Assembly: GCF_019966535.1 (NCBI RefSeq)
Contig: NZ_JAIMID010000003.1
Coordinates: forward strand, 62,001 to 126,000
Length of the DNA stretch: 64,000 bases
Origin: Mesobacterium pallidum
GTDB lineage: Bacteria; Pseudomonadota; Alphaproteobacteria; Rhodobacterales; Rhodobacteraceae
Reading direction: 5' to 3'
In this document: positions 7,431 through 31,110 of the stretch, piece by piece
Layout of the letters: each line of letters opens with the position of its first letter
How positions within the stretch are numbered: position 1 is the stretch's first letter
Program-made: the position numbers and the translations under genes
Notes under the pieces: model-generated
Databases searched by the model: none
Told to the model about the DNA's origin: nothing
Seen by the model: the letters and a program-made list of their open reading frames with translations, nothing else

Positions 7431-8843
7431 TCAGCTGCCCTTGGTGCGCCAGCTGTCGGCGTAGTTCTCGCGGGCCTCGCTCGAATACGGGGTCGGCGAC
7501 ACGCGGACGCGGATCTCGGTCTGCTGGTGCGTCTCGGTCGAGGTCTTGCCGGTCGGCTCGGGCTCGCCCCACTTGAGGGTCAGCACGTCACCAACCTGGA
7601 CGCTGGTGTCCACCACGCCGAGGCTCAGCAGGCAGCGTTCGTTGTAGCTGTAGCCGTTGAACATCGACATGCCGACCATCTTGTCGCCGTTCATGACCAT
7701 GTCGGCCGAGGACGAGGCGTAGTTCGGCTGCGGGAAGTCGATCCACTTGTAGGGAATGCCCTCTTCGAAGTTCGACGCGATGACCTTCAGCACGTCTTCC
7801 TTGTTCCACTCGAAGGTGACCTTCTTGCGCTTGGGACCTTCGGCCTTGATCTTCTCGAGAGCGGCCTTGCCGATGAAGTCGGCCTTTTTCCAGCCGATGT
7901 AGAAGTCGTAGCCCAGTTCGAACGGGTTGACGTAGTAGTCTTCGATGTTGTCGCTGACATACGACCCGCCGATCGACCCGGCGGCCTCGTAGGCCTCGAC
8001 GCCCAGCCACTTGCGGTATTCGGCGACCATGTCACCGCCGGTGTAGATGCCCGGCAGCGGCGACGGGATCCAGCCCGATTCCAGCGTGTTGGTCGAATAG
8101 GCGCGGCTGCCGCACTGGACCAGGTTCACGCCGGCGTCGCGCGCGGCCTGCAGGATGGTCGAGTGGATGTAGTCCTTGTCCTTGTAGGGGCCCCAGACCT
8201 CGAGGCCCGGCGCGCCGGACATGCCGTGGCGCAGCGCCTGCACCTTCTTGGAACCGATGTTGATCCACTCGACGTGGAAGAACTTGATATCGGGGATCGG
8301 GCCGCCGTTCATCTTTTCGAAGATCGCGCCGGCGTCGGGACCCTGGATCTGGAAGCGGTAATGCTCGCGCAGCACGCGCTCGCCCTCGGGGCGCGACGGC
8401 GAACGGGGGTCGTGACGGATGCGGACGTTCCAGCTGCCGTAGGAGGCGGCGAACATCAGCCAGTTGGACACCGGGGCGCGGCCGACGAGGATGAACTTGT
8501 CCTCACGCTCACGGAAGATGATGTGGTCGCCGATCACGTGGCCGGCGGGGGTCACCGGCACGTAGTGCTTGGCGCGGTTCAGGTTGAAGTTCCCGAAGGC
8601 GTTGATGCCGTGGTAGGCAAGGAATTCCTCGGCCTGCGGGCCTTCGACGATCAGCTCGTCCATGTGGTGCGACTGGTCGAACAGCACGGCCGACTTGCGC
8701 CAGGCTTCCTGTTCCACGCGCCAGTTCGAGAATTCCGGTGCGACGACCGGGTAGACGTACATGCCGATCTTGGAATCGCGCAGGTGGCCGACGATGTCGC
8801 CGCCCTTCTCGTCGATGATGTCTTGCAGGCTCGTATTGGCCAT
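7431..8843 (-). CDS. Tetrahydrofolate-dependent aromatic O-demethylase, LigM/DesA-like
   Basis: 470 residues, matching LigM (about 471) rather than DmdA or GcvT (about 360-380). It belongs to the GcvT aminomethyltransferase fold: an N-terminal part with DQSHHMDELIVEGPQAEEFL and a central RFQIQGPDAGAIFEKM segment, then MSGAPGLEVWGPYKD and the C-terminal TSTETHQQTEIRVRVSPTPYSSEARENY. In Sphingobium this family moves the methyl of vanillate, 3-O-methylgallate or syringate to THF. The ATG at 8843 follows GGGAGGACACCC; a longer upstream frame crosses the operator and is rejected. An AATGTATACATT palindrome lies just upstream, MetF is nearby, and a GntR gene follows upstream, so substrate-induced control is likely. 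DMSP demethylation remains a less likely alternative. Confidence 0.8.
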   Translation of the reverse strand: MANTSLQDIIDEKGGDIVGHLRDSKIGMYVYPVVAPEFSNWRVEQEAWRKSAVLFDQSHHMDELIVEGPQAEEFLAYHGINAFGNFNLNRAKHYVPVTPAGHVIGDHIIFREREDKFILVGRAPVSNWLMFAASYGSWNVRIRHDPRSPSRPEGERVLREHYRFQIQGPDAGAIFEKMNGGPIPDIKFFHVEWINIGSKKVQALRHGMSGAPGLEVWGPYKDKDYIHSTILQAARDAGVNLVQCGSRAYSTNTLESGWIPSPLPGIYTGGDMVAEYRKWLGVEAYEAAGSIGGSYVSDNIEDYYVNPFELGYDFYIGWKKADFIGKAALEKIKAEGPKRKKVTFEWNKEDVLKVIASNFEEGIPYKWIDFPQPNYASSSADMVMNGDKMVGMSMFNGYSYNERCLLSLGVVDTSVQVGDVLTLKWGEPEPTGKTSTETHQQTEIRVRVSPTPYSSEARENYADSWRTKGS

Positions 8844-8864
8844 TGGGTGTCCTCCCATTGCGTT

Positions 8865-8876
8865 AATGTATACATT
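8865..8876. promoter_or_regulatory. GntR-type operator overlapping the demethylase promoter
   Basis: Perfect 12-bp palindrome AATGTATACATT, 22 bases before the start codon of the LigM-like gene. On the minus strand its TATACAT could serve as a -10 hexamer, so a bound repressor would block the polymerase. FadR/VanR-type GntR proteins often bind sites with a GTATAC core. The same ten bases recur before the GntR gene. Confidence 0.75.
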
Positions 8877-8931
8877 TCGCCGAAATCGGCACGGTTTTGC
8901 AAGGGTCATTTTTCGCCGCAGCGCGGCGAGA

Positions 8932-9657
8932 TCACTCCACCAGCAGCGCGAGGCTGGCAGGCTTGGCGCCCGCCGCGTCGCGCAGGATGTATTCGAGGTT
9001 CCGGCGCGCGATCATCGCGTGCTCGCGGGCGATGGCCTCGGCCCGGGCGCCCTGACGGGCCAGGATCGCCTCGACCAACCCGCGGTGCTGGCTTTGCGCG
9101 ACGATCAACGACAGGTGGAAATCGCGCAGCGCCCGCTGGTCGGGCAGAAAGGCCGAGGGAGAGGCAAAGGGCAGCGACTTGGCGCGATCCAGCTCACGCT
9201 GCACGACCTCTGACGAACAGAGCATTCCCAGCTCATCGTGAAATCGAGCGTTGAACTCATAATAACTTTCAAAATCAACATTTTCAGGTTGTGAACCGAC
9301 ACTCTTTTCAAGCTGCGCGAGGGTCTCCTGGACGGCGCTCATCCGGGCCTCTTCCCAGCCGCGCTCCGCCGCCAGCCGGGCGGCTGTGCCTTCGAGCACG
9401 CCGCGCAACTCTATGGCGTCTACCACGTCGTTGTAGGCAAAGCTGCGCACCATGAATCCACGGCCCGATGCGCGCTCCAACAACCCCTCTTCGGCCAGCC
9501 GCGACATGGCCTCGCGCACCGGCGTGCGCGAGATGTCGAGCTCTTCGGCCAGCGCCACCTCGTAAAGACGGGTGCCGCCCGTGAGCTCTCCGTTCATGAT
9601 CCGGCGCCGCAGTTCGAACACCGCGCGCTTGGTCTGGTTCTGCGTAGTTGTGGCCAT
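8932..9657 (-). CDS. GntR-family (FCD domain) transcriptional regulator
   Basis: 241 residues. The N-terminal winged helix (residues 10-75) shows LRRRIMNGELTGGTRLYEVALAEELDISRTPVREAMSRLAEEGLL, the usual FadR-subfamily pattern. The C-terminal FCD domain contains the metal/ligand-binding residues expected around FNARFHDEL (H140). GGAGG precedes the ATG at 9657. It sits directly upstream of the LigM-like gene on the same strand and has its own copy of the ATGTATACAT site, so it probably represses the O-demethylation genes and itself. Residues 120-139 are encoded by an unusually AT-rich stretch (21 G/C of 60 bases at 9241-9300). Confidence 0.9.
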   Translation of the reverse strand: MATTTQNQTKRAVFELRRRIMNGELTGGTRLYEVALAEELDISRTPVREAMSRLAEEGLLERASGRGFMVRSFAYNDVVDAIELRGVLEGTAARLAAERGWEEARMSAVQETLAQLEKSVGSQPENVDFESYYEFNARFHDELGMLCSSEVVQRELDRAKSLPFASPSAFLPDQRALRDFHLSLIVAQSQHRGLVEAILARQGARAEAIAREHAMIARRNLEYILRDAAGAKPASLALLVE

Positions 9658-13790: not shown

Positions 13791-16154
13791 TCAGCCGTTC
13801 ATCGCTGCCCAGACGCGCGACGGCGACACGGGCATGTCGATGTGTTCCACCTTGTGACCGCCCGAGTGCAGCGCGTCGATCACCGCGTTGACCACCGCCG
13901 GCGGGGAGCCGATGGCGCCGGCCTCGCCGCAGCCCTTCACGCCCAGCGGGTTGTGGGTGCAGGGGGTCTGGCAGGAATGGTCGACCTTGTAGAACGGCAC
14001 GTCCGAGGCGCGCGGCATCGCGTAATCCATGTAGGATGCGCTCAGCAGCTGGCCGTTCTCGTCGTAGGCGCAGTTTTCCAGCAGCGCCTGGCCGATGCCC
14101 TGGCCGATCCCGCCGTGCACCTGGCCATCGACGATCATCGGGTTGACGATGTTGCCGAAGTCATCGGTGGCGGCGAAGCTCTCGATGGTGACTTTGCCGG
14201 TCTCGGGGTCGACCTCGACCTCGCAGCAATAGGCCCCCGAGGGGTAGGTGAAGTTCGACGGGTCGTAGAACGCCGTCTCTTCCAGCCCCGGCTCGATGTC
14301 TTCCAGCGGGTAGTTGTGCGGCACGTAGGCGGCGAGGCAGACCTCGCCCCAGGCGACCGACTTGTCGGTGCCGGCGACGCTGAACGCGCCGTCCTTGAGC
14401 TCGATATCGCCTTCCGAGGCTTCCATCAGGTGGGCCGCGATCTTCTTGGCCTTGTTGATGATCTTCTCGGCCGCGCGCACCATGGCCGAGCCGCCCACCG
14501 CGAGCGAGCGCGAGCCGTAGGTGCCCATGCCCATCGGAGACCTGGCGGTGTCGCCATGGACGATCTCGACCTGGTCCTCGGGGATGCCGATCATCTCGGA
14601 GATGACCTGCGGGAACGAGGTCTCGTGCCCCTGCCCGTGGCTATGCGATCCGGTCATGACCACGACGCCGCCGGTGGCATTCACCCGCACGGTTGCGCTT
14701 TCATAAAGACCGGCACGGGCGCCCAGTTGCCCCACCAGGTTCGACGGCGCGATGCCGCAGGCCTCGATGTAGCAGTTGACGCCAAGGCCACGCAGCTTGC
14801 CCTTGGCTTCGGAGTCCTTCCGCCGCGCCTCGAAGCCGGCGAAATCGGCGATCTCGACCAGCTTGTCCATCGTTGCGTGGTAATCGCCCGTGTCGTATTC
14901 CACGGCCACCGGGGTGGCATAGGGGAACTCGGTGATGAAGTTCTGGCGGCGCAGCTCGACCGGGTCGACGCCCAGCTCGCGCGCCGCCTTGTCGATCACG
15001 CGCTCGAGTTGGAAGGTCGCCTCGGGGCGGCCGGCACCGCGGTAGGCGTCCACGGGAACGGTGTTGGTAAAGACCGCCTTCACGTTCACGTAGATCAGCG
15101 GCGTCTTGTAGTTGCCGGCCATCAGCGTGCCATGCAGCCAGGTCGGAACCGACGGCGCGAAGGTCGAAAGATACGCGCCCATGTTGGCGTAGGTCTCGGT
15201 CCGCAGCGCGGTGAAGTTGTTGTCCGCATCCAGCGCCAGTTGGATCTTGGTCACGTGGTCGCGTCCATGGGCGTCGGACATGAACGCCTCCGACCGGCTC
15301 GACGTCCACTTGACCGCGCGGTTCAGCTGCTTGGCGGCAAAGGTGCAGAAGGCTTCTTCGGCATAGTGGAAGATCTTGGTGCCGAAACCGCCACCCACGT
15401 CGGGGGCGACGACACGCAGCTTGTGCTCGGGGATGCCGAGCACGAAAGCGCCCATCAGCAGCCGGATCACATGCGGGTTCTGCGAGGTGGTGTAGAGGGT
15501 CGAGTCGCCGCTGGCGCGGTTGAAATCGCCCACCGCCACGCGCGGCTCCATCGGGTTGGCGACAAGGCGGTTGTTGCGCAGCTCGAGCGTGGTGACATGC
15601 GCGGCCTTGGAGAACGCCTCTTCGACGGCGCCCTTGTTCTCTTCGACAAAGCCCCAGTCATAGCAGAGGTTGGTGCCGATATCGTCATGGACGAGGGCCG
15701 AGCCCTCTTGCACGGCGGCCTTCATGTCGACGACGGCGGGCAGTTCCTCGATGTCGAGCTCGATCGCCTCGGCGGCGTCGCGCGCCTGGTCGAGGCTGTC
15801 GGCCACCACGGCGGCGATCGGGTCGCCCACGTGGCGCACCTTGCCCTGGGCCAGCACCGGGTGCGGCGGCTCCTTCATCGGCTCGCCATGCTTGTCGGTC
15901 ACCTGCCAGCCGCAGGGCAGCCCGCCGATGCCTTCGAAATCGGCGCCGGTAAAGATGCGCACGACGCCCGGCATCGCCGCGGCGGCGGCGGTGTCGATGC
16001 TGTTGATCTTCCCATGCGCCACGTCCGAGCGCAGGAAGTAGACATAGGCCTGGCCGTGGATGTTGATGTCGTCGGTGTAATTGCCGGTACCGGTCAGAAA
16101 CCGGATATCCTCGCGCCGCTTGTTGCTGGCGCCAATGCCATGATCTTTCGGCAT
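13791..16154 (-). CDS. coxL: Form II CO dehydrogenase-type molybdenum subunit
   Basis: 787 residues from the ATG at 16154, which follows GGGAGGAGC. It is a xanthine oxidase-family molybdopterin subunit: [25 protein letters not shown] at the start, [10 protein letters not shown] at 251-260, and the active-site loop AYRGAGR at 370-376. Form I CoxL proteins, proven CO oxidisers, carry AYRCSFR with the Cu-binding Cys; AYRGAGR defines form II (BMS clade), whose CO activity is doubtful. The conserved catalytic Glu is in [16 protein letters not shown] near the C-terminus. The operon lacks coxDEF accessory genes, which also argues for a different physiological substrate. Confidence 0.9.
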
Positions 16155-16173
16155 GCTTGCTCCTCCCTGAAGG

Positions 16174-16230
16174 ATGGTGGGGGTGGGCCCCACCCTACGA
16201 AATGTGGGTAGGGTGGGGTTTCACCCCACC
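16174..16230. repeat. GTGGGGT/ACCCCAC inverted repeats between coxS and coxL
   Basis: Two GC-rich inverted repeats lie side by side: GGGTGG/CCACCC near 16181-16195, and GGTGGGG/CCCCACC at 16212-16230. The joined motif (GTAGGGTGGGGTTTCACCCC) recurs near 52229 and resembles the core of the 55-bp tandem array at 52000. These hairpins fall inside an operon and could stabilise or attenuate the message. Confidence 0.65.
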
Positions 16231-16242
16231 ATGCGTCTCAAT

Positions 16243-16728
<486 letters not shown>

Positions 16729-16761
16729 GTGGCTCCTCCCTCTATCCCGAAATTCCTTGGC

Positions 16762-17283
16762 TCAGCCGCGCGCGAGACGCTTGAGCCAGCCTTTCTTTTC
16801 CGCCGCCACCTCGGCGACTTCCGGATCAGTCTCTCCTTCTTCGGGGCCTTCGACAACCCCTTGGAAGCGTTCAAAGAACTGATCCGCCATCTTCTTGGCA
16901 AAGCCGTCGATGATACGCGAGCCAAGCTGCGCCAGCTTGCCGCCCACCTTGGCCTGCACGTCGTATTCCAGCAGCGTGCCCTCGCCCTCTTCGGTCAGCG
17001 TGACGACCGCCCCGCCCGAGGCGAAGCCGGCCGCGCCACCCTTGCCTTCGCCCACGATCTTGAGGCTGGCGGGCGGGTTCGGATCCTCGATCGCGACCTT
17101 GCCCTTGAAGGTCGCCTTGACCGGGCCGACCTTCTGCACGACGACCGCTTCGAAGCCGTCATCGGCATTGCCGGTCATTTCCTGGCAGCCGGGCACGCAG
17201 GCCTTCAGCACGTCGGGGTCGAGCATGGCCGCATAGACCACCTCACGGGGGGCTGCGATAGAACGGGAACCCTTAAGCTCCAT
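16762..17283 (-). CDS. coxG: CoxG-like SRPBCC protein
   Basis: 173 residues; the start at 17283 follows AAGGAGCG. It has the CoxG pattern MELKGSRSIAAPREVVYAAMLDPDVLKACVPGCQEM, then a SRPBCC hydrophobic-pocket domain and a basic C-terminus KKGWLKRLARG. In Oligotropha, CoxG is thought to anchor or recruit CO dehydrogenase to the membrane. As the first gene of this operon, it suggests that the enzyme is attached to the inner face of the membrane and feeds the quinone pool. About 100 bases separate it from the next gene upstream, leaving room for a promoter. Confidence 0.88.
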   Translation of the reverse strand: MELKGSRSIAAPREVVYAAMLDPDVLKACVPGCQEMTGNADDGFEAVVVQKVGPVKATFKGKVAIEDPNPPASLKIVGEGKGGAAGFASGGAVVTLTEEGEGTLLEYDVQAKVGGKLAQLGSRIIDGFAKKMADQFFERFQGVVEGPEEGETDPEVAEVAAEKKGWLKRLARG

Positions 17284-17388
17284 TGGACGCTCCTTGACTT
17301 TCATGGGCACGCTACGCCGGGACGGCGCGGCGCGGATATAAGACCAATGGACAGGGCCATCCGGCCCGGTCCGCGAATCGTGGTCCGG

Positions 17389-18298: not shown

Positions 18299-18988
18299 TC
18301 AGTGCGCCGCGGACAGGCCGATGGTCAGCGTCTCGGCCGCCTTGTGATAGCCCTCGGGCGAGCCGTCGATGATCCTGGCGGCGCGGCTTGCCACGCTGTC
18401 GGCCATGGGCGCGCCCGACAGGGTCTCGATGCCGCTCGCGATCTCGCTCAGGCGGGCCTTCAGCGCATCCGCATCGGCGCCCGTGGCGTCCGTGGCATAG
18501 CCGGCCAACTGGTCGCGCAGCGCCTTCAGCTCGGGGCTCACCTCTTCCATCATGTCGCTGTCGGGCCGCGTCTCGATATAGGTGCGGATGGCCCAGGCGG
18601 CCTCCTGGCCCAGCAGTTCGCCGAAGGCGGGCATCTTGGTGATGCCGTTCTGCGTGTAGCCATCGCGGAACCGCTCGACATACCATTCGTCGCCGAATTC
18701 CTCGGCCTCTAGGAACCGCAGGTCTGGCGCCAGCCCGCCCGAGACGACCTCGAGCCCGTGGCAGCGGGCGCAGTTCTGGTTGTAGCCCGAGGCGCCGATT
18801 TCGACCGCCGTCTGCCAGACCTCTTCGCCCGCCGCCTCGGCGCGGTAGGGATTTTCCGTCAGCCATTCCTCGGCCAGTTCGGGCAGGCCGGTGGTATCAA
18901 CCGCCTGCGGGGCCACGTCGCCATGGGCCAATGCCTGCCCTGCAAGGGCAAGGGCCGCCAGTGCAAGGCCGTGCTTGATCGCGCTCAT
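18299..18988 (-). CDS. pedF: Cytochrome c-550 of PedF type
   Basis: 229 residues with a signal peptide ending LAGQALA. The mature N-terminus HGDVAPQAVDTTGLPELAEEWLTENPYR and ASGYNQNCARCHGLE are hallmarks of cytochrome c-550 PedF, partner of PQQ alcohol dehydrogenases in Pseudomonas. Heme is bound by C73, C76 and H77; M119 in ITKMPAF is the likely sixth ligand. It carries electrons from the dehydrogenase to the terminal oxidase chain. It is divergent from the binding-protein gene, with 164 bases between the two starts. Confidence 0.88.
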   Translation of the reverse strand: MSAIKHGLALAALALAGQALAHGDVAPQAVDTTGLPELAEEWLTENPYRAEAAGEEVWQTAVEIGASGYNQNCARCHGLEVVSGGLAPDLRFLEAEEFGDEWYVERFRDGYTQNGITKMPAFGELLGQEAAWAIRTYIETRPDSDMMEEVSPELKALRDQLAGYATDATGADADALKARLSEIASGIETLSGAPMADSVASRAARIIDGSPEGYHKAAETLTIGLSAAH

Positions 18989-19152
18989 AGGTTTCTCCTC
19001 CCGGTCCTACCGTTTCTGTTCGCTGATCCATGGTGTACCCGCGACTTCGCACCGGCCGGTATTGGACTTTGGTTCAGGCACCATCGTCTTGCGACCAAGG
19101 TCTAGGATGCGTGACTTCCGCGCGTTCCTACCTTGGACGGAGGGAGGATTTC

Positions 19153-20331
19153 ATGAAACGCGCATCACGCCTGCTGGGCGCCATCGCCCTTGGATTGTCC
19201 GCGGCCCAGCCGCTGCGGGCCGAGGTCGCCGTGACCCTGCATTTCCTCAAGATCGACGTGCCGGCGCCGCCGACGCTGACCTCGCTCGACGTGGTGCCCG
19301 AGGGGCTGGGCCTGGACGGGGCCGCGCTGGCGGTGGCGGACAATACGACGACGGGGCGCTTTCTTGGCCAGACCTACAGGCTCGAACAGTCCGAGGTCGA
19401 CGTGGACGGCGATGTCACCGGCGCCGCCCGGGCCGCGCTGGCGCAGACACCCTACCTGGTCATCGACGGCCCGGCCGAGGCGCTGCTGGCCATCGCCGAT
19501 CTGCCCGAGGCGCAGGGTGCCATCCTCTTCAACGCCTCGGCGCCCGATGCCGCCCTGCGGTCGGGCGACTGCCGGGCGAACCTGCTGCACACCGCGCCCT
19601 CGGACGCGATGCGGACCGATGCCATCGCGCAGTACCTCGTGGTGCGCAAATGGACCGACGCGGTGATGATCGTCGGGCCGCACCCCGCCGACAAGGCTTT
19701 CGCCGCGGCCATGGAACGCTCGCTCGCCAAGTTCGGCGCGCGGCTGCGCGAGACCAAGACCTGGGGCGAGAGCGGCGCCGACATGCGCCGCAACGCCGCC
19801 GAGGAGGTGCCGCTATTCACCGCCGATTTCCCCGGACATGACGTGGTGATCGTCGCTGACGAACTGCACGATTTCGGCCGCTTCATCCCCTACAACACGC
19901 AAGAACCGCGCCCCGTCGTCGGCTCCGAAGGGCTGCGGGCCGAGGCATGGGCGCCGGTGGTCGAGCAATGGGGCGCCGCGCAGCTGCAATCGCGGTTCCA
20001 GGATCACGCCGGCCGCCCGATGGAGCCGGGCGATTACGCCGCCTGGGCCGCCGTCCGCGCGGTGGGCGAAGCGGTGACGCGCACCGGCACGGGCGATTCG
20101 GACAGCGTCTATGCCTACATGACGGGCCCGGAGTTCGAACTGGCCGGCTTCAAGGGCCGCCCGCTGTCCTTCCGCCCCTGGAACGGCCAGCTGCGCCAGA
20201 CCATTCCGCTGGTCCATGACCGCGCGCTGGCCGCCAGCGCCCCGTTCGAAGGGTTCCTGCACCCGGTCACCGAACTTGACACGCTGGGGCTCGACCGCCC
20301 CGAAAGCGCCTGCACCGCCTTCGAGGAGTAA
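19153..20331 (+). CDS. ABC-type binding protein of PQQ alcohol dehydrogenase clusters
   Basis: 392 residues. The ATG at 19153 follows GGAGGGAGGAT and opens a signal peptide (MKRASRLLGAIALGLSAAQPLRA). The rest is a type I periplasmic binding fold, with VAVTLHFLKIDVPAPPTLTSL and later LFNASAPDAALRSGDCRANLLHTAPSDAMRTDAIAQYLVVRKW. This matches the family of ABC substrate-binding proteins found only beside PQQ alcohol dehydrogenases. No ABC ATPase or permease is present in the window, so it may act alone as a sensor or chaperone, or with a transporter encoded elsewhere. Confidence 0.82.
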   Translation: MKRASRLLGAIALGLSAAQPLRAEVAVTLHFLKIDVPAPPTLTSLDVVPEGLGLDGAALAVADNTTTGRFLGQTYRLEQSEVDVDGDVTGAARAALAQTPYLVIDGPAEALLAIADLPEAQGAILFNASAPDAALRSGDCRANLLHTAPSDAMRTDAIAQYLVVRKWTDAVMIVGPHPADKAFAAAMERSLAKFGARLRETKTWGESGADMRRNAAEEVPLFTADFPGHDVVIVADELHDFGRFIPYNTQEPRPVVGSEGLRAEAWAPVVEQWGAAQLQSRFQDHAGRPMEPGDYAAWAAVRAVGEAVTRTGTGDSDSVYAYMTGPEFELAGFKGRPLSFRPWNGQLRQTIPLVHDRALAASAPFEGFLHPVTELDTLGLDRPESACTAFEE

Positions 20332-22530: not shown

Positions 22531-22542
22531 GGTCGTACGACC
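22531..22542. promoter_or_regulatory. Palindromic operator GGTCGTACGACC, copy 1
   Basis: Perfect 12-bp palindrome, centred about 106 bases upstream of the cytochrome c start. An identical copy stands about 112 bases upstream of the dehydrogenase gene. The matching sequence and spacing suggest a dimeric activator, for example a NarL-type regulator such as the one encoded at 27000. Confidence 0.75.
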
Positions 22543-22570
22543 AAAGGACCAGCGCCGCAGCGCCGCCGGG

Positions 22571-22584
22571 TTGACCTGCATCAA
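22571..22584. promoter_or_regulatory. FNR/FnrL-like box
   Basis: TTGACCTGCATCAA fits the FNR consensus TTGAY-N4-ATCAA. It is centred 65 bases before the cytochrome c start. If it acts at -41.5, transcription would begin near 22619 with TAGCGT (22606-22611) as -10. That would join oxygen control to quinoprotein respiration; one match alone is modest evidence. Confidence 0.55.
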
Positions 22585-22642
22585 CCGGCCCCGCCTGCGG
22601 CGGGCGTAGCGTTCTGCTGCGCAATCCAAAGGAGGACCCGCC

Positions 22643-23074
22643 ATGCTTCGCCCAATCGCCACCGCCGCGTTTTGCCTCGCCGCCCTGCCTGCCCTGTCGC
22701 AGGAAAGCTATTCCGAAGGCGCCTTCGAAAAGATCAAGATCACCGCCGGCGAGACGCTGTTCGACGCCGAATGCCGTCGCTGCCACGCGGTGGACGCCAG
22801 CGACGCCTCTTACGGCCCGCCGCTCGAGAACGTCCTGGGGCGCGGCGCAGGCACCTATCCGGACTACGATTACTCGATCGCGCTCTCGGCCTCGGGAATC
22901 GTCTGGACCCCCGCCGCCCTGCGCGCCTGGATCGAGGACAACGACGGCTTCATGCCCGGCACCAGGATGCGCCACGTCGGGATCACCGACCGCACCGTGC
23001 AGGACTTCATCCTCGCCTACCTCGCCCACATCTCGCCCCGCGACGGCAGCGAAGTGACTGAAAAGCGGGAGTAA
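22643..23074 (+). CDS. Class I cytochrome c of the quinoprotein cluster
   Basis: 143 residues with a signal peptide ([20 protein letters not shown]). Heme is bound by C44, C47 and H48 (CRRCH); M109 in MPGTRM is the probable sixth ligand, as in mitochondrial-type c550. AAGGAGG precedes the ATG. It stands just upstream of the dehydrogenase gene and shares its palindromic operator, so it is the likely direct electron acceptor of the quinoprotein or the link to the cytochrome oxidase. PedF at 18299 would be an alternative or additional acceptor. Confidence 0.88.
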
Positions 23075-23102
23075 ACCCGGCCCCGCCCCACCACCGCCCA
23101 AA

Positions 23103-23114
23103 GGTCGTACGACC
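23103..23114. promoter_or_regulatory. Palindromic operator GGTCGTACGACC, copy 2
   Basis: Identical to the palindrome at 22531-22542 and followed by the same A; centred about 112 bases before the PQQ alcohol dehydrogenase start. A one-sided match, CGACCAAGG (19092-19100), lies before the ABC-like binding protein gene and may be a weak third site. Confidence 0.75.
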
Positions 23115-23220
23115 ATTGCACAATACCCCCCGGGCCCGGCCGCGGCGAATACTGCTGCCGAGGCCGGTCCCTGCGAGGGGCATGTTCCGGCCCCGGGAAC
23201 AACGCATAGGGAGGAGACCG

Positions 23221-26999: not shown

Positions 27000-27680
27000 G
27001 TGACCGACATGCTGATGAACAAGGACTGGGCCCTCGTGATCGACGATCACCCGCTGTTCTGCGACGCGCTCGAGCTGACGCTGCGCTCGGTCGCGCCGGA
27101 TTGCGACGTGGTCACCGCCGACACGCTCGAGGCCGCGCTGGAGGTGCTGTCAGGTCGCCCCGCGCCCGGCGTCATCGCGCTGGACCTGAACCTGCCCGAT
27201 GTCACCGGGCTGGACGGTCTGATGCGGCTGAAACGCGCCGCACAGGACACGCCGGTGATCGTCGTCAGCTCGATGGCCGATGCGCGGATCATCTCGGGCG
27301 CGCTCAAGGCCGGCGCCTCAGGCTACGTGCCGAAACATTCGCCGCGCTCGGTCTTCAAGGCGGCGCTGGACACCATCGCGCGCGGCGAGACCTTCGTGCC
27401 GGACAATTTCCTCGACGCCAGCGGCGAGGCCGAGCATGCCGATGCCGTGGCGCGGCTGGCCACGTTGACCGCGCAGCAGGGGCGCATCCTGGAACTGATC
27501 TGCGACGGCAAGCTGAACAAGCAGATCGCCTTCGAGCTGACGATCGCCGAGACCACGGTCAAGGCGCATGTCACCGCCATCATGCGCAAACTCGGTGTGC
27601 AAAGCCGGACCCAGGCCGTACTGGTCGCGCAAGAGGCGCGGTTCGCCGCCATCTTGCCAGAGATCGAGCAATCGCCGTAA
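27000..27680 (+). CDS. NarL/FixJ-type response regulator
   Basis: 226 residues counted from the GTG at 27000; ATGs at 27009 and 27015 are alternatives since none has a clear ribosome site. The receiver has acidic residues DD (15-16), phospho-acceptor D62 (VIALDLNLPDVTG) and the KAGASGYVPK switch region. The C-terminal LuxR-type helix-turn-helix reads KLNKQIAFELTIAETTVKAHVTAIMRKLGV. It precedes a FIST protein and a hybrid kinase on the same strand. Related regulators (ExaE/ErdR, PedR, FlhR) control PQQ alcohol oxidation, so it is a good candidate to bind the GGTCGTACGACC sites. Confidence 0.9.
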   Translation: MTDMLMNKDWALVIDDHPLFCDALELTLRSVAPDCDVVTADTLEAALEVLSGRPAPGVIALDLNLPDVTGLDGLMRLKRAAQDTPVIVVSSMADARIISGALKAGASGYVPKHSPRSVFKAALDTIARGETFVPDNFLDASGEAEHADAVARLATLTAQQGRILELICDGKLNKQIAFELTIAETTVKAHVTAIMRKLGVQSRTQAVLVAQEARFAAILPEIEQSP

Positions 27681-27724
27681 CCTGACCTCCGGGACTGGTT
27701 CTCGAAGCAGGGGAGGCTTCGGGC

Positions 27725-28906
27725 ATGGAAATGAAGAGCGGCGGATTGACGTCGCGCGCCGCCGGAGGAGCGGCGCACGCCCTCGTCACGCTTCAGGTGC
27801 CTTCGGATCATCCCGATCCGGTGGCCCAGATGCGCGTCGCCTTCGGCGAAGACGATCCCGAGCAGATCTTCCTGTTCATGTCGCCCTCGGGCGATCTGGG
27901 CGCGCTTGGCGCTGCCTGCCGCACCCATTTCCCGAATTCCGACATCACCGGCTGCACCACGGCCGGAGAGATCGGGCCCGCCGGATATCTCGACGATCAC
28001 CTTGTGGCAATCGCCCTGCCCCGACGCCATTTCCGCACCCGCACCGTGCTGATCGAGAACCTCGACGCGCTCGACTCGCAATCGCTGATCGACCGGCTGG
28101 TCCAGGAGCGTATCACGCTGACACGCGAGAACCCCGAGCGGCCCAACGGCTTTGCCTTCCTGCTGGTCGACGGCATGTCGCTGCGCGAAGACATGCTGGC
28201 CGGCACCATCGCCCCGGCGCTTGGCACCTTCCCGGTCTTCGGCGGCTCGGCCGGGGACGGGATGCGGTTCCAGGAAACGCGGGTGCTGCATGACGGGCTG
28301 CTTTACGACAATGCCGCCGTGCTGACCTTTGCCGTGACCGATTGCGGCACGCGGGTCTTCAGCCTCGACCACCTGGTGCCGACCGGCACGCGCATGGTGG
28401 TGACCGATGCCGACCCCGACCGCCGCGTGGTCAAGGAAATCAACGCCGAGCCCGCCGCGCAGGAATATGCCCGCATCATCGGCAAGACGGCGGGCGATCT
28501 CGACGAGTTCACCTTTGCCGCCCACCCGGTCGTGGTGCGCCTTGGTGACACGCATCACGTGCGGTCGATCCAGCGCGTCGGCGACGACGGAGAGCTGCAT
28601 TTCTTTTCCGCCATCGACGAGGGCATGGTGCTGACGGTCGCCAATGCGCAGGACCTGTCCGTGCATCTCGAGGCCGAGCTGGCGCGCCTGTCCGAGACCG
28701 AGCGCCCGGCCGACATCCTTGGCTGCGACTGCCTTCTGCGCAAGATCGAGGCCGAGCAGAGCCAGATCAAGCAGGCGGTGTCGGACGTGCTGCAACGCAA
28801 CAGGGTGGTCGGCTTTTCCACCTATGGCGAACAGATCGGCCCGATGCATGTGAACCACACCATGACCGGCGTCGCCTTCTACCTGCCCGAGCGCGCGCTG
28901 CGATGA
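27725..28906 (+). CDS. FIST-domain sensor protein
   Basis: 393 residues, cytoplasmic. The N-terminal FIST domain shows IFLFMSPSGDLGALGAACRTHFPNSDITGCTTAGEIGPAGYLDDHLVAIALP, including the typical GCTTAGE; the C-terminal FIST_C part ends with VVGFSTYGEQIGPMHVNHTMTGVAF. FIST domains are proposed to sense small molecules for signal transduction. It overlaps the following hybrid kinase by four bases (ATGA), so the two are translated together and the FIST protein is probably the kinase input module. Confidence 0.9.
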   Translation: MEMKSGGLTSRAAGGAAHALVTLQVPSDHPDPVAQMRVAFGEDDPEQIFLFMSPSGDLGALGAACRTHFPNSDITGCTTAGEIGPAGYLDDHLVAIALPRRHFRTRTVLIENLDALDSQSLIDRLVQERITLTRENPERPNGFAFLLVDGMSLREDMLAGTIAPALGTFPVFGGSAGDGMRFQETRVLHDGLLYDNAAVLTFAVTDCGTRVFSLDHLVPTGTRMVVTDADPDRRVVKEINAEPAAQEYARIIGKTAGDLDEFTFAAHPVVVRLGDTHHVRSIQRVGDDGELHFFSAIDEGMVLTVANAQDLSVHLEAELARLSETERPADILGCDCLLRKIEAEQSQIKQAVSDVLQRNRVVGFSTYGEQIGPMHVNHTMTGVAFYLPERALR

Positions 28907-31110
28907 GCCTGATCGACCCCACCGACAGCCTCGAGCGGCAGAACGAAAAGCTGGTGCGCATCGCCGAAAGCCTGATGCGGCGGGTCGAGCAGAGCCCGAA
29001 CAATTCCGGCCTGGCCTATGCGCAGTTCGAACGGGCCGCCCTGCTCGAGGCGCAGGTGCGCCAGCGGACCAACGATCTCGAACGCACGCTGGACCTGCTG
29101 CATTCCTCGAACGCCCGGCTTGCCCAGGCCAATGCCGAGGCGGAGGCCGCGCGCAAGAACCTGGCCGAGGCGATCGAGGCGGTGGACGAAGGGTTCGCCC
29201 TCTTCGACGTGGACGACCGGCTGGTCATGCACAACACCCGCTTCTGCAAGGAGCTGGCGGACATCAAGCCGATCCTGCGGCCGGGGCTGAGTTTCGAGGA
29301 TTACGTGCAAGCGGTCAGCGGGTCGCGTTTCCTGTCGCTGCCGGGCGGGGACACGCCGGGCAGCTGGGCCGACCGCCGCATGGCGCGGCACAAGGACCGG
29401 CACGTCGTCTTCAACGTCGCGCTGATCTGGGACCGCTGGTTGCAGGTGAGCGAGCATCGCTCGGCCTCGGGCGGCACGGCGATCCTGCAGACGGATGTCA
29501 CCAAGATCCTGCGGCTCGAGCGGCGCGAACGCGACCGGCTGGTCGACCGGCAGGCACGGATGGTGCGGGCGACGCTCGACCACCTGAACCAGGGCGTCTG
29601 CATCTTCGACAAGGACCAGCGCCTCGTCGGCTGGAACATGCAGATGGAGGCGCTGCTGCAACTGCCCGCCGAGGGCAGCGTGCTGGGCCTGCCGTTCTCG
29701 GACCTGCTCGACCGGCTAGACGACACGCTGCGATTCACCGGCCAGGTGGGCCGCGACGACATCGAGGCCTGGGCGCGGCTGGCCAATGGCCGCCGGCCGC
29801 TGAACTTCGAGATCCAGCGCCTCGAGGACCAGATCTTCGCCGTCTTCGCCCAGGAGATGCCGGACCGCGGCTTCGTCATCTCCTTCACCGACGTGACCGT
29901 CGAACGCGAGGCGGCCCGCGCGCTGCGCGACCTCAACGAGACGCTCGAGCGGCGGGTGGAGGAGCGCACGCTGGAGCTGGGCGAGGCGCTGGCCGAGGCG
30001 CAGCGCGCCAATGCCTCCAAGAACCGCTTTGTCGCCGCCGCCAGCCATGACCTCTTGCAGCCGCTCTCGGCCGCCAAGCTGTTCATGGCCTCGCTCGAGG
30101 AACGCTGCGAGGGCGAGGCGGGCGAGACCGCGACCAAGGCAATCTCGGCGCTGGCCAGCGTCGAGGGGATCATCGAGGCGCTGCTCGACATCTCCAAGCT
30201 CGACAGCGGGCAGGCGAGCCTGAACATCCAGCCCGTCCACCTGGGTGCGCTGGTCAGCTCTCTGCGGACGGAAATGATGCCGCTGGCGCGCGGCAAGGGG
30301 CTCGAGCTGCGCATCGTGCCCTCGTCCCTGCTGATCGAGAGCGATCCGATCTACCTGCGCCGGGTGATCCAGAACCTTGTCACCAACGCGATCCGCCACA
30401 CCAACGGCCGCAAGATCGTGCTGGGCGTGCGCCGCACCGGGGGCGCCGCGCGGGTCGAGGTCTGGGACGAGGGCCCCGGCATCGCGCCCGAAGACCAGCA
30501 GGTGATCTTCCAGGAATTCCGCCAGCTGCAGCCGGGCCGCTCGGGCGCCAACGGGCTGGGGCTGGGCCTCGCCATCGTGGAACGCGCCTGCCAGACCCTG
30601 GGCCACCGCCTTGGCCTTTGGTCCGAGCCCGGGCGTGGCAGCTGTTTTTCCGTCTCGGCCACCTGCATCGGCCAGGGCGTGGCCACGGATGCGCGCCGCC
30701 CCGAGGGCCGCAAGATGCCGCTGGCCGAGGGCCTCGTCGTCTTCCTGGTCGAGAACGACCCGGACGTGGCGCGCGGCATCACCCTGACCATCGAGGGCTG
30801 GGGCAGCCACGTCATCCACACTGAATCCGGCGAAGAAGCGCTGTCCCTGATGGAAGAGCTGGGCATCCTGCCCGACGGCTTCCTGATCGACAACCAGCTG
30901 GGCGCGGGCAACATGCCGGGCACCGAATTGCTGGGCCACCTGCGCGCGCGTTACGGCGACATCAACGCCCGCATCATCTCGGCCGATCGCACCCAGGCGC
31001 TGATGGCCGAATGCGACCTGCTGGGCGTTCCGTTCATCGCCAAGCCGCTGGACCGGGCGCGCCTGGTCGAGTTCATGGAGTCCGCCCGTCAGGACTTTGC
31101 CGGCGCCTGA
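28903..31110 (+). CDS. Hybrid sensor histidine kinase (PAS-HisKA-HATPase-REC)
   Basis: 735 residues, no membrane segment. A coiled-coil N-terminus (residues 30-85) leads to two PAS-like regions (about 85-190 and 215-330), then a second coiled coil. The HisKA site is AAASHDLLQPL with H382; the ATPase has NLVTNAIRHT, DEGPGIAPED and GLGLGLAIV. A C-terminal receiver has D663 (FLIDNQLG) and K in PFIAKPLD, so phosphotransfer is possible. This layout resembles the NahK/ErcS' soluble hybrid kinases that sit near PQQ ethanol-oxidation genes in Pseudomonas. It overlaps the FIST gene. Confidence 0.92.
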   Translation: MSLIDPTDSLERQNEKLVRIAESLMRRVEQSPNNSGLAYAQFERAALLEAQVRQRTNDLERTLDLLHSSNARLAQANAEAEAARKNLAEAIEAVDEGFALFDVDDRLVMHNTRFCKELADIKPILRPGLSFEDYVQAVSGSRFLSLPGGDTPGSWADRRMARHKDRHVVFNVALIWDRWLQVSEHRSASGGTAILQTDVTKILRLERRERDRLVDRQARMVRATLDHLNQGVCIFDKDQRLVGWNMQMEALLQLPAEGSVLGLPFSDLLDRLDDTLRFTGQVGRDDIEAWARLANGRRPLNFEIQRLEDQIFAVFAQEMPDRGFVISFTDVTVEREAARALRDLNETLERRVEERTLELGEALAEAQRANASKNRFVAAASHDLLQPLSAAKLFMASLEERCEGEAGETATKAISALASVEGIIEALLDISKLDSGQASLNIQPVHLGALVSSLRTEMMPLARGKGLELRIVPSSLLIESDPIYLRRVIQNLVTNAIRHTNGRKIVLGVRRTGGAARVEVWDEGPGIAPEDQQVIFQEFRQLQPGRSGANGLGLGLAIVERACQTLGHRLGLWSEPGRGSCFSVSATCIGQGVATDARRPEGRKMPLAEGLVVFLVENDPDVARGITLTIEGWGSHVIHTESGEEALSLMEELGILPDGFLIDNQLGAGNMPGTELLGHLRARYGDINARIISADRTQALMAECDLLGVPFIAKPLDRARLVEFMESARQDFAGA

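What the first reader, a model, noticed from the sequence alone, without database searches (positions are those of the whole stretch)
22531..23114. Twin GGTCGTACGACC palindromes at matched distance from two quinoprotein genes
Two identical perfect 12-bp palindromes lie centred about 106 bp and 112 bp before the start codons of the cytochrome c (22643) and the dehydrogenase (23221). Identical sequence plus matched spacing is hard to get by chance in 64 kb and points to a dedicated activator. A partial site CGACCAAGG at 19092 precedes the binding-protein gene.
Basis: seen in the sequence. Interest (0 to 1): 0.75.

Follow-up and report, generated by a model that had tools for sequence, protein, structure and literature searches.

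The report
Conserved regulator site before alcohol-oxidation genes
A short mirror-image DNA sequence in front of two alcohol-oxidation genes turns out to be one part of a larger regulator landing site that is conserved in front of the same genes in related marine bacteria, and the regulator that reads it is probably encoded a few genes away.

Summary
GGTCGTACGACC lies at 22531 and 23103, 106 and 112 bp before the cytochrome c and PQQ-dehydrogenase genes; the 5.98 Mb genome holds no other exact copy. It is only part of the signal. In 79 orthologous loci plus the window, the conserved element is a 17-bp box, TACGACC-WW-KGTSCAAT, above the shuffle threshold in 76 of 80, with a -10-like hexamer 38-40 bp downstream in 63 of 76. 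An abutting GGTC, present in 41 of 76, creates the palindrome. The box also precedes cytochrome, pedF, ABC-binding-protein and often regulator genes, and is rare before most operon-internal genes. It resembles the published CrbR "ACTU" motif (PMC5715377) in length, form and promoter position. The likely binder is the NarL-type response regulator at 27000, encoded with a NosP-like protein and a hybrid kinase. Three genomes without a close regulator ortholog lack the box. Outside the class, 13 of 31 loci carry a related palindrome, GGTNNTACNACCAAG. Binding, direction of control and signal are untested; the papers I could search showed no operator for AgmR-type regulators.

The parts
22531..22542 (+). 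Palindrome 1, GGTCGTACGACC
22536..22552 (+). Box before the cytochrome c gene, TACGACCAAAGGACCAG (weak right half; orthologs often read TACGACC-AA-AGCACAA)
   Evidence: score 12.4, beats 20 of 20 shuffles; box found before 32 of 39 cytochrome c genes, window included
23103..23114 (+). Palindrome 2, GGTCGTACGACC, inside a 20-bp near-palindrome CAAAGGTCGTACGACCATTG (23099-23118)
23108..23124 (+). 17-bp box of the dehydrogenase promoter, TACGACCATTGCACAAT
   Evidence: 26-bp profile score 33.8; conserved in 76 of 80
23148..23153 (+). -10-like hexamer AATACT, 40 bp after the box start
   Evidence: sequence; spacing 38-40 bp in 63 of 76 promoters
19090..19106 (+).
   Evidence: score 5.4, beats 20 of 20 shuffles
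17339..17355 (+). Candidate box TAAGACCAATGGACAGG, inverted with respect to the coxG gene that it precedes
   Evidence: weaker evidence
22643..23074 (+). Cytochrome c gene
   Evidence: Pfam PF00034
23221..24993 (+). PQQ-dependent alcohol dehydrogenase gene with the DYDG motif
   Evidence: TIGR03075, 755.7 bits against cut-off 480; motif
18299..18988 (-). pedF-type cytochrome c-550 gene, divergent from the ABC-binding protein
   Evidence: TIGR04494, 193.3 bits against cut-off 122
19153..20331 (+). ABC substrate-binding protein of PQQ-alcohol dehydrogenase systems
   Evidence: TIGR03863, 473.1 bits against cut-off 413.6
27000..27680 (+). NarL-type response regulator, the proposed binder
   Evidence: Response_reg and GerE domains; ErdR model 161.8 bits, below its cut-off of 390
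27725..28906 (+). FIST-domain, NosP-like protein
   Evidence: NosP model 380.9 bits, below its cut-off of 450; FIST and FIST_C domains
28903..31110 (+). Hybrid histidine kinase (PAS, HisKA, HATPase, receiver)

Best explanation
The palindromes are parts of operators for the NarL-type, AgmR-like response regulator encoded at 27000. Shown by sequence: the promoter element is a 17-bp box of two imperfectly mirrored heptamers, TACGACC-WW-KGTSCAA(T), at fixed distance from a -10-like element; in about half of the relatives a third heptamer, GGTCKTA, sits back-to-back with the first and shares its TA, which makes GGTCGTACGACC when K is G. Inferred: a dimer of the phosphorylated regulator binds the box beside RNA polymerase and switches on the dehydrogenase, its cytochromes, the binding proteins and, in some species, its own gene; the extra heptamer strengthens or alters that binding. 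Inferred: the kinase at 28903, with the NosP-like protein, sets the phosphorylation state. The signal is unknown.
For: Box in 76 of 80 dehydrogenase promoters by leave-one-out, flanks unconserved; -10-like element 38-40 bp downstream in 63 of 76; box also before cytochrome c 32 of 39, pedF 46 of 61, ABC-binding protein 43 of 64, regulator 28 of 52, against beta-propeller 0 of 66, NosP 0 of 51, coxL 0 of 21, xoxJ 2 of 63; regulator gene in 51 of 79 loci, directly after the dehydrogenase in 42, with NosP and kinase in 50; of the 28 loci without it, 26 genomes hold an ortholog of 61% identity or more elsewhere, and the two that do not (L052, L066) lack the box; a third genome, G275, lacks both; same length, layout and promoter position as the CrbR ACTU motif, whose acs site scores 17.1 on the profile; the stretch IAETTVKAHV of the DNA-binding domain is identical to that of 8 of 8 gammaproteobacterial proteins that I labelled AgmR-type.
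Against: No binding or expression data. Two loci whose genomes hold the regulator (L088 at 61%, L086 at 52%) fall below the box threshold. The window's own regulator gene has no good box (score 1.6). HK, whose upstream lies inside nosP, still beats all shuffles in 14 of 50, though none scores 8 or more. Genome-wide the 17-mer with up to 2 mismatches is hardly above its backwards control (16 against 13). The profile finds the box in hardly any of 20 more distant dehydrogenase loci (1 of 20 beats all 200 shuffles). The tree does not place this regulator within the AgmR-labelled group.
Confidence: 0.75

Rival explanations
1. The box is read by another NarL-type regulator encoded elsewhere (an ErdR/CrbR-like or PedR2/ExaE-like protein), and the adjacent triad serves a different purpose.
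For: The box resembles the ACTU motif of CrbR; several relatives carry second regulators of 41-46% identity.
Against: In the own genome no other protein comes near: the next best match to the ErdR model is 87.8 bits against 161.4. Loss of the close ortholog goes with loss of the box in genomes that still hold regulators of 37-44% identity.
Confidence: 0.12
2. A LysR- or GntR-type repressor reads the palindrome.
For: A LysR gene (26050) lies beside the regulator, and a GntR gene lies at 8932.
Against: Only one of 79 loci shows any LysR match (27% identity). GntR conservation was not tested. The heptamer layout fits NarL-type regulators.
Confidence: 0.07
3. Chance palindromes or a repeat without regulatory role.
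For: Copy number alone is not above its controls.
Against: Conservation in position in 76 of 80 loci, the gene set that carries the box, and the fixed spacing to a -10-like element.
Confidence: 0.02

Closest known systems
ACTU motif of CrbR/ErdR, Pseudomonas fluorescens (PMC5715377, passages seen)
   Same: 17-bp imperfect inverted repeat; reported at -52 to -36 of the acs start, here about -51 to -35 of an inferred start; TACKACC-WW-..GTC.AAT form; linked to a LuxR/NarL-family response regulator
   Different: Other target genes (quinoprotein alcohol oxidation, not acetate use), a regulator that is not ErdR by model score, and an optional back-to-back third heptamer
AgmR (ErbR/PedR1) with nosP and pedS1/nahK in the Pseudomonas ped cluster (PMC12997753, passages seen)
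   Same: LuxR-type regulator encoded near a nosP homolog and a hybrid kinase; control of PQQ-alcohol dehydrogenases and associated genes
   Different: Only 37-41% identity to the proteins that I labelled AgmR-type, outside their group in the tree; the passages seen give no AgmR operator sequence to compare
NarL 7-2-7 heptamer sites (recalled)
   Same: Two heptamers in inverted order with a 2-bp spacer
   Different: Other heptamer sequence, plus a third heptamer that shares TA with the first

Membership tests
ACTU (CrbR/ErdR) operator | 17-bp imperfect inverted repeat of the ACTU form | tested here: met
   acs ACTU site scores 17.1 on the quinoprotein profile, within the range of the dehydrogenase sites (7.9-30.5) and above all 200,000 random 17-mers; other published sites score from 0.0 to 19.0
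ACTU (CrbR/ErdR) operator | Located just upstream of the -35/-10 promoter | tested here: met
   -10-like hexamer 38-40 bp after the box start in 63 of 76; start sites themselves not mapped
ACTU (CrbR/ErdR) operator | Cognate regulator is ErdR/CrbR | tested here: not met
   161.8 bits against a cut-off of 390 for the regulator at 27000; no protein of the genome is over the cut-off
ACTU (CrbR/ErdR) operator | Precedes acetate-use genes (acs, actP) | not tested
   acs and actP promoters of this genome were not examined; the sites here precede quinoprotein genes
AgmR-type regulon | Regulator encoded beside nosP and a hybrid kinase | tested here: met
   RR, NosP-like and HK adjacent in the window and all three present in 50 of 79 loci
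AgmR-type regulon | Regulator groups with AgmR in a tree | tested here: inconclusive
   33-row tree puts it with its Rhodobacterales relatives outside both labelled groups, several forks open; labels are mine
AgmR-type regulon | Direct binding and activation of the dehydrogenase promoter | not testable with these tools
   needs footprinting and reporter assays

The most novel reading that the evidence does not exclude
GGTCGTACGACC with its flanks is a compound operator of three heptamers that share bases, so that two regulator dimers compete for or cooperate over the same TACGACC half, and the NosP-like/kinase branch thereby makes lanthanide-type alcohol oxidation answer to a second signal such as nitric oxide; the layout would be shared by Rhodobacterales and more distant proteobacteria.
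Probability: 0.17. Interest if true: 0.66.

Novelty: new variant of a known kind. Interest (0 to 1): 0.46.

Why it matters
It gives a concrete operator and a predicted regulon for the AgmR-like control of quinoprotein alcohol oxidation in marine Rhodobacterales, ties it by form to the CrbR ACTU motif, and shows a related palindrome before similar dehydrogenases outside the class. The ped-cluster review calls the signalling that leads to AgmR unresolved (PMC12997753, passages); a defined site makes reporters and binding assays possible.

Tried and rejected
Palindrome alone as the operator: rejected, since GGTC is in 41 of 76 promoters and the exact 12-mer in 17, while TACGACC is nearly constant and the CAAT side is mostly kept. 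Divergent promoter: GTCAA (TTGAC on the reverse strand) sits at the mirror position in 23 of 41 GGTC promoters against 3 of 35 others, but I saw no matching -10 on that strand, so it stays unexplained. LysR gene as regulator: a match in 1 of 79 loci only. Further targets in the own genome: 16 matches to the 17-mer with up to 2 mismatches against 13 for the backwards control; of 12 contexts inspected, 11 lie inside mechanical ORFs and one, C11:159073, is intergenic with no clear gene after it. pqq genes as targets: no pqqE over the cut-off (best 53.5 against 381.35 bits) and no pqqC match, but the pqqC control rang in no genome, so absence is not shown.

Limits: shuffles were mononucleotide; about 1 in 21 of any gene class would beat 20 shuffles by chance; the 79 loci are related and are the best of a capped list, with L060 dropped for want of upstream DNA; the Mann-Whitney test ignores kinship; the GGTNNTACNACCAAG pattern was written after seeing some of the sites that it then counts; some genomes also appear. 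The -10 count breaks ties towards 39 bp. Papers: searches for an AgmR, ErbR or ExaE operator and for motif letters (15 of 82 rows seen) showed no report of this site in the rows listed; PMC5436829, PMC4686015 and PMC5934484 were searched for terms only. The library lacks most subscription journals, among them the 2004 AgmR paper cited.

Full report
Observation. GGTCGTACGACC is at 22531-22542 and 23103-23114, centred 106.5 and 112.5 bp before the ATGs of the cytochrome c (22643) and PQQ-dehydrogenase (23221) genes. The genome has these two exact copies and 10 one-mismatch copies elsewhere. The number of copies is not unusual, since the pattern read backwards is as common or commoner; the placement is. 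In 197 other genomes of the family the exact 12-mer occurs at 15 sites in 14 genomes; of 14 sites fetched, 7 lie about 104-134 bp before the dehydrogenase ortholog.

What is conserved. Of 80 dehydrogenase loci fetched, one (L060) lacked upstream DNA. In the other 79 and the window the flanks carry almost no information while one element stands out: TACGACC, WW, KGTSCAATW, then a -10-like AATAMT. A leave-one-out profile exceeds the 99% level of shuffles in 76 of 80; the exceptions are L052, L066, L086 and L088. The -10-like hexamer starts 38-40 bp after the box start in 63 of 76, 43 of them at 39; 13 had no such hexamer. With a start about 7 bp further on, the box would cover about -51 to -35. 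GGTC abuts the box in 41 of 76 and the exact 12-mer is in 17 of 76; promoters with GGTC have weaker right halves (p = 0.0016, kinship not corrected). In the window the dehydrogenase site extends to a 20-bp near-palindrome, CAAAGGTCGTACGACCATTG (18 of 20 symmetric; sequence).

Which genes carry it. Counting regions that beat all of 20 shuffles (window included): dehydrogenase 77 of 80, cytochrome c 32 of 39, pedF 46 of 61, ABC-binding protein 43 of 64, response regulator 28 of 52. Operon-internal controls: beta-propeller 0 of 66, NosP 0 of 51, coxL 0 of 21, xoxJ 2 of 63, coxS 3 of 31. Mixed: HK 14 of 50 (none scoring 8 or more), sel1 20 of 55, soxY 11 of 51, coxG 14 of 36. With both strands scanned over 250 bp, coxG gives 24 of 36, sel1 22 of 55, soxY 5 of 51, xoxJ 2 of 63, beta-propeller 1 of 66, coxL 0 of 21. 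The window's own regulator gene has no good one.

Regulator. The window encodes a NarL-type response regulator, a NosP-like FIST protein and a hybrid kinase at 27000-31110. An ortholog of the regulator lies in 51 of 79 loci, directly after the dehydrogenase in 42, and all three genes are in 50. I searched 31 genomes for it: the 28 whose locus lacked it, L086 (regulator about 11 kb away) and two positive controls. Twenty-eight of 31 hold a 61-70% ortholog and L086 one of 52%; the two without (39-40% at best) are those of L052 and L066, whose dehydrogenase lacks the box. L088 has the ortholog (61%) but only a sub-threshold variant of the box. In a separate draw, 9 loci outside the own genome have dehydrogenases of 72% identity or more: 7 carry a strong box, L149 (same coordinates as the L086 genome) a weak one, and L150 of G275 none; the best regulator match of G275 is 44%. 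Of the 20 more distant loci, 1 beats all 200 shuffles with this profile. The LysR gene beside the regulator has a match in 1 of 79 loci.

Comparison with known systems. The CrbR (ErdR) ACTU motif is a 17-bp imperfect inverted repeat reported at -52 to -36 of the acs start and needed for CrbR activation (PMC5715377, passages). Its acs site scores 17.1 on the quinoprotein profile, within the range of the dehydrogenase sites (7.9-30.5) and above all of 200,000 random 17-mers; seven other published sites score 0.0 to 19.0. The regulator at 27000 is not ErdR by score (161.8 against 390). Three gammaproteobacterial proteins that I labelled AgmR-type score 177-186 and three that I labelled ErdR-type 285-430, one of them over the cut-off. 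The stretch IAETTVKAHV, which I take to be the recognition helix (recalled), is identical in the window protein and 8 of 8 AgmR-labelled rows, while ErdR-labelled rows read VSEAT(V/I)KAH(V/I). The tree leaves the Rhodobacterales regulators outside both groups, with open forks. The Pseudomonas review places AgmR in the ped cluster with a nosP homolog and PedS1 and names it local activator (PMC12997753, passages).

Beyond the class. Of 31 dehydrogenase upstreams from genomes of the same phylum but another class, 13 carry GGTNNTACNACCAAG with at least 10 of 12 fixed letters and at most 3 of 200 shuffles as good; 12 lie 128-147 bp before the start, one at 244 bp, and L160 has the exact GGTCGTACGACC. 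The other 18 do not, among them all 6 second dehydrogenases of genomes that have two (L185-L190). Which regulator reads these sites is open; in Pseudomonas PedR2/ExaE is another candidate. The DYDG motif, taken as the lanthanide signature (recalled), is in the window enzyme and was matched in 71 of the 79 loci.

Judgement. The site is real and conserved, and is best read as the operator of an AgmR-like NarL-type regulator, with the palindrome as one layout of its half-sites. Binding, activation and signal are inferred. It is a strong prediction within a known kind of regulation, with an unusual compound arrangement.

Noticed in passing
Whole genome of the window (G000): No pqqE over the model cut-off (best 53.5 against 381.35 bits) and no pqqC match (but its control rang nowhere): the host may depend on PQQ from outside.
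   Followed up: partly
15-19 bp before TACGACC in GGTC-type dehydrogenase promoters, e.g. L025, L035, L045: GTCAA at fixed spacing in 23 of 41 GGTC promoters against 3 of 35 others; no matching -10 on the reverse strand seen. Unexplained.
   Followed up: partly
window 13791-17310: Molybdenum hydroxylase (coxL/coxS-like) and coxG genes near the quinoprotein cluster in many relatives; a box often precedes coxG (24 of 36), so an aldehyde oxidation step may be co-regulated.
   Followed up: partly
window 7431-8909: Vanillate/3-O-methylgallate O-demethylase LigM (616.4 bits against cut-off 580), beside a GntR-type regulator gene at 8932-9657.
   Followed up: no
L135 5074 (G000 C11:159073): Strong intergenic box TACGACCAAGGTCCACT with no clear protein gene after it; possibly a small transcript or chance.
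   Followed up: partly
L025, L030, L031, L047, L091 upstream of the dehydrogenase box: A second dyad of the CGACT-TT-GGTCG type lies some 25-35 bp further upstream, so some promoters may have tandem boxes (read by eye).
   Followed up: no
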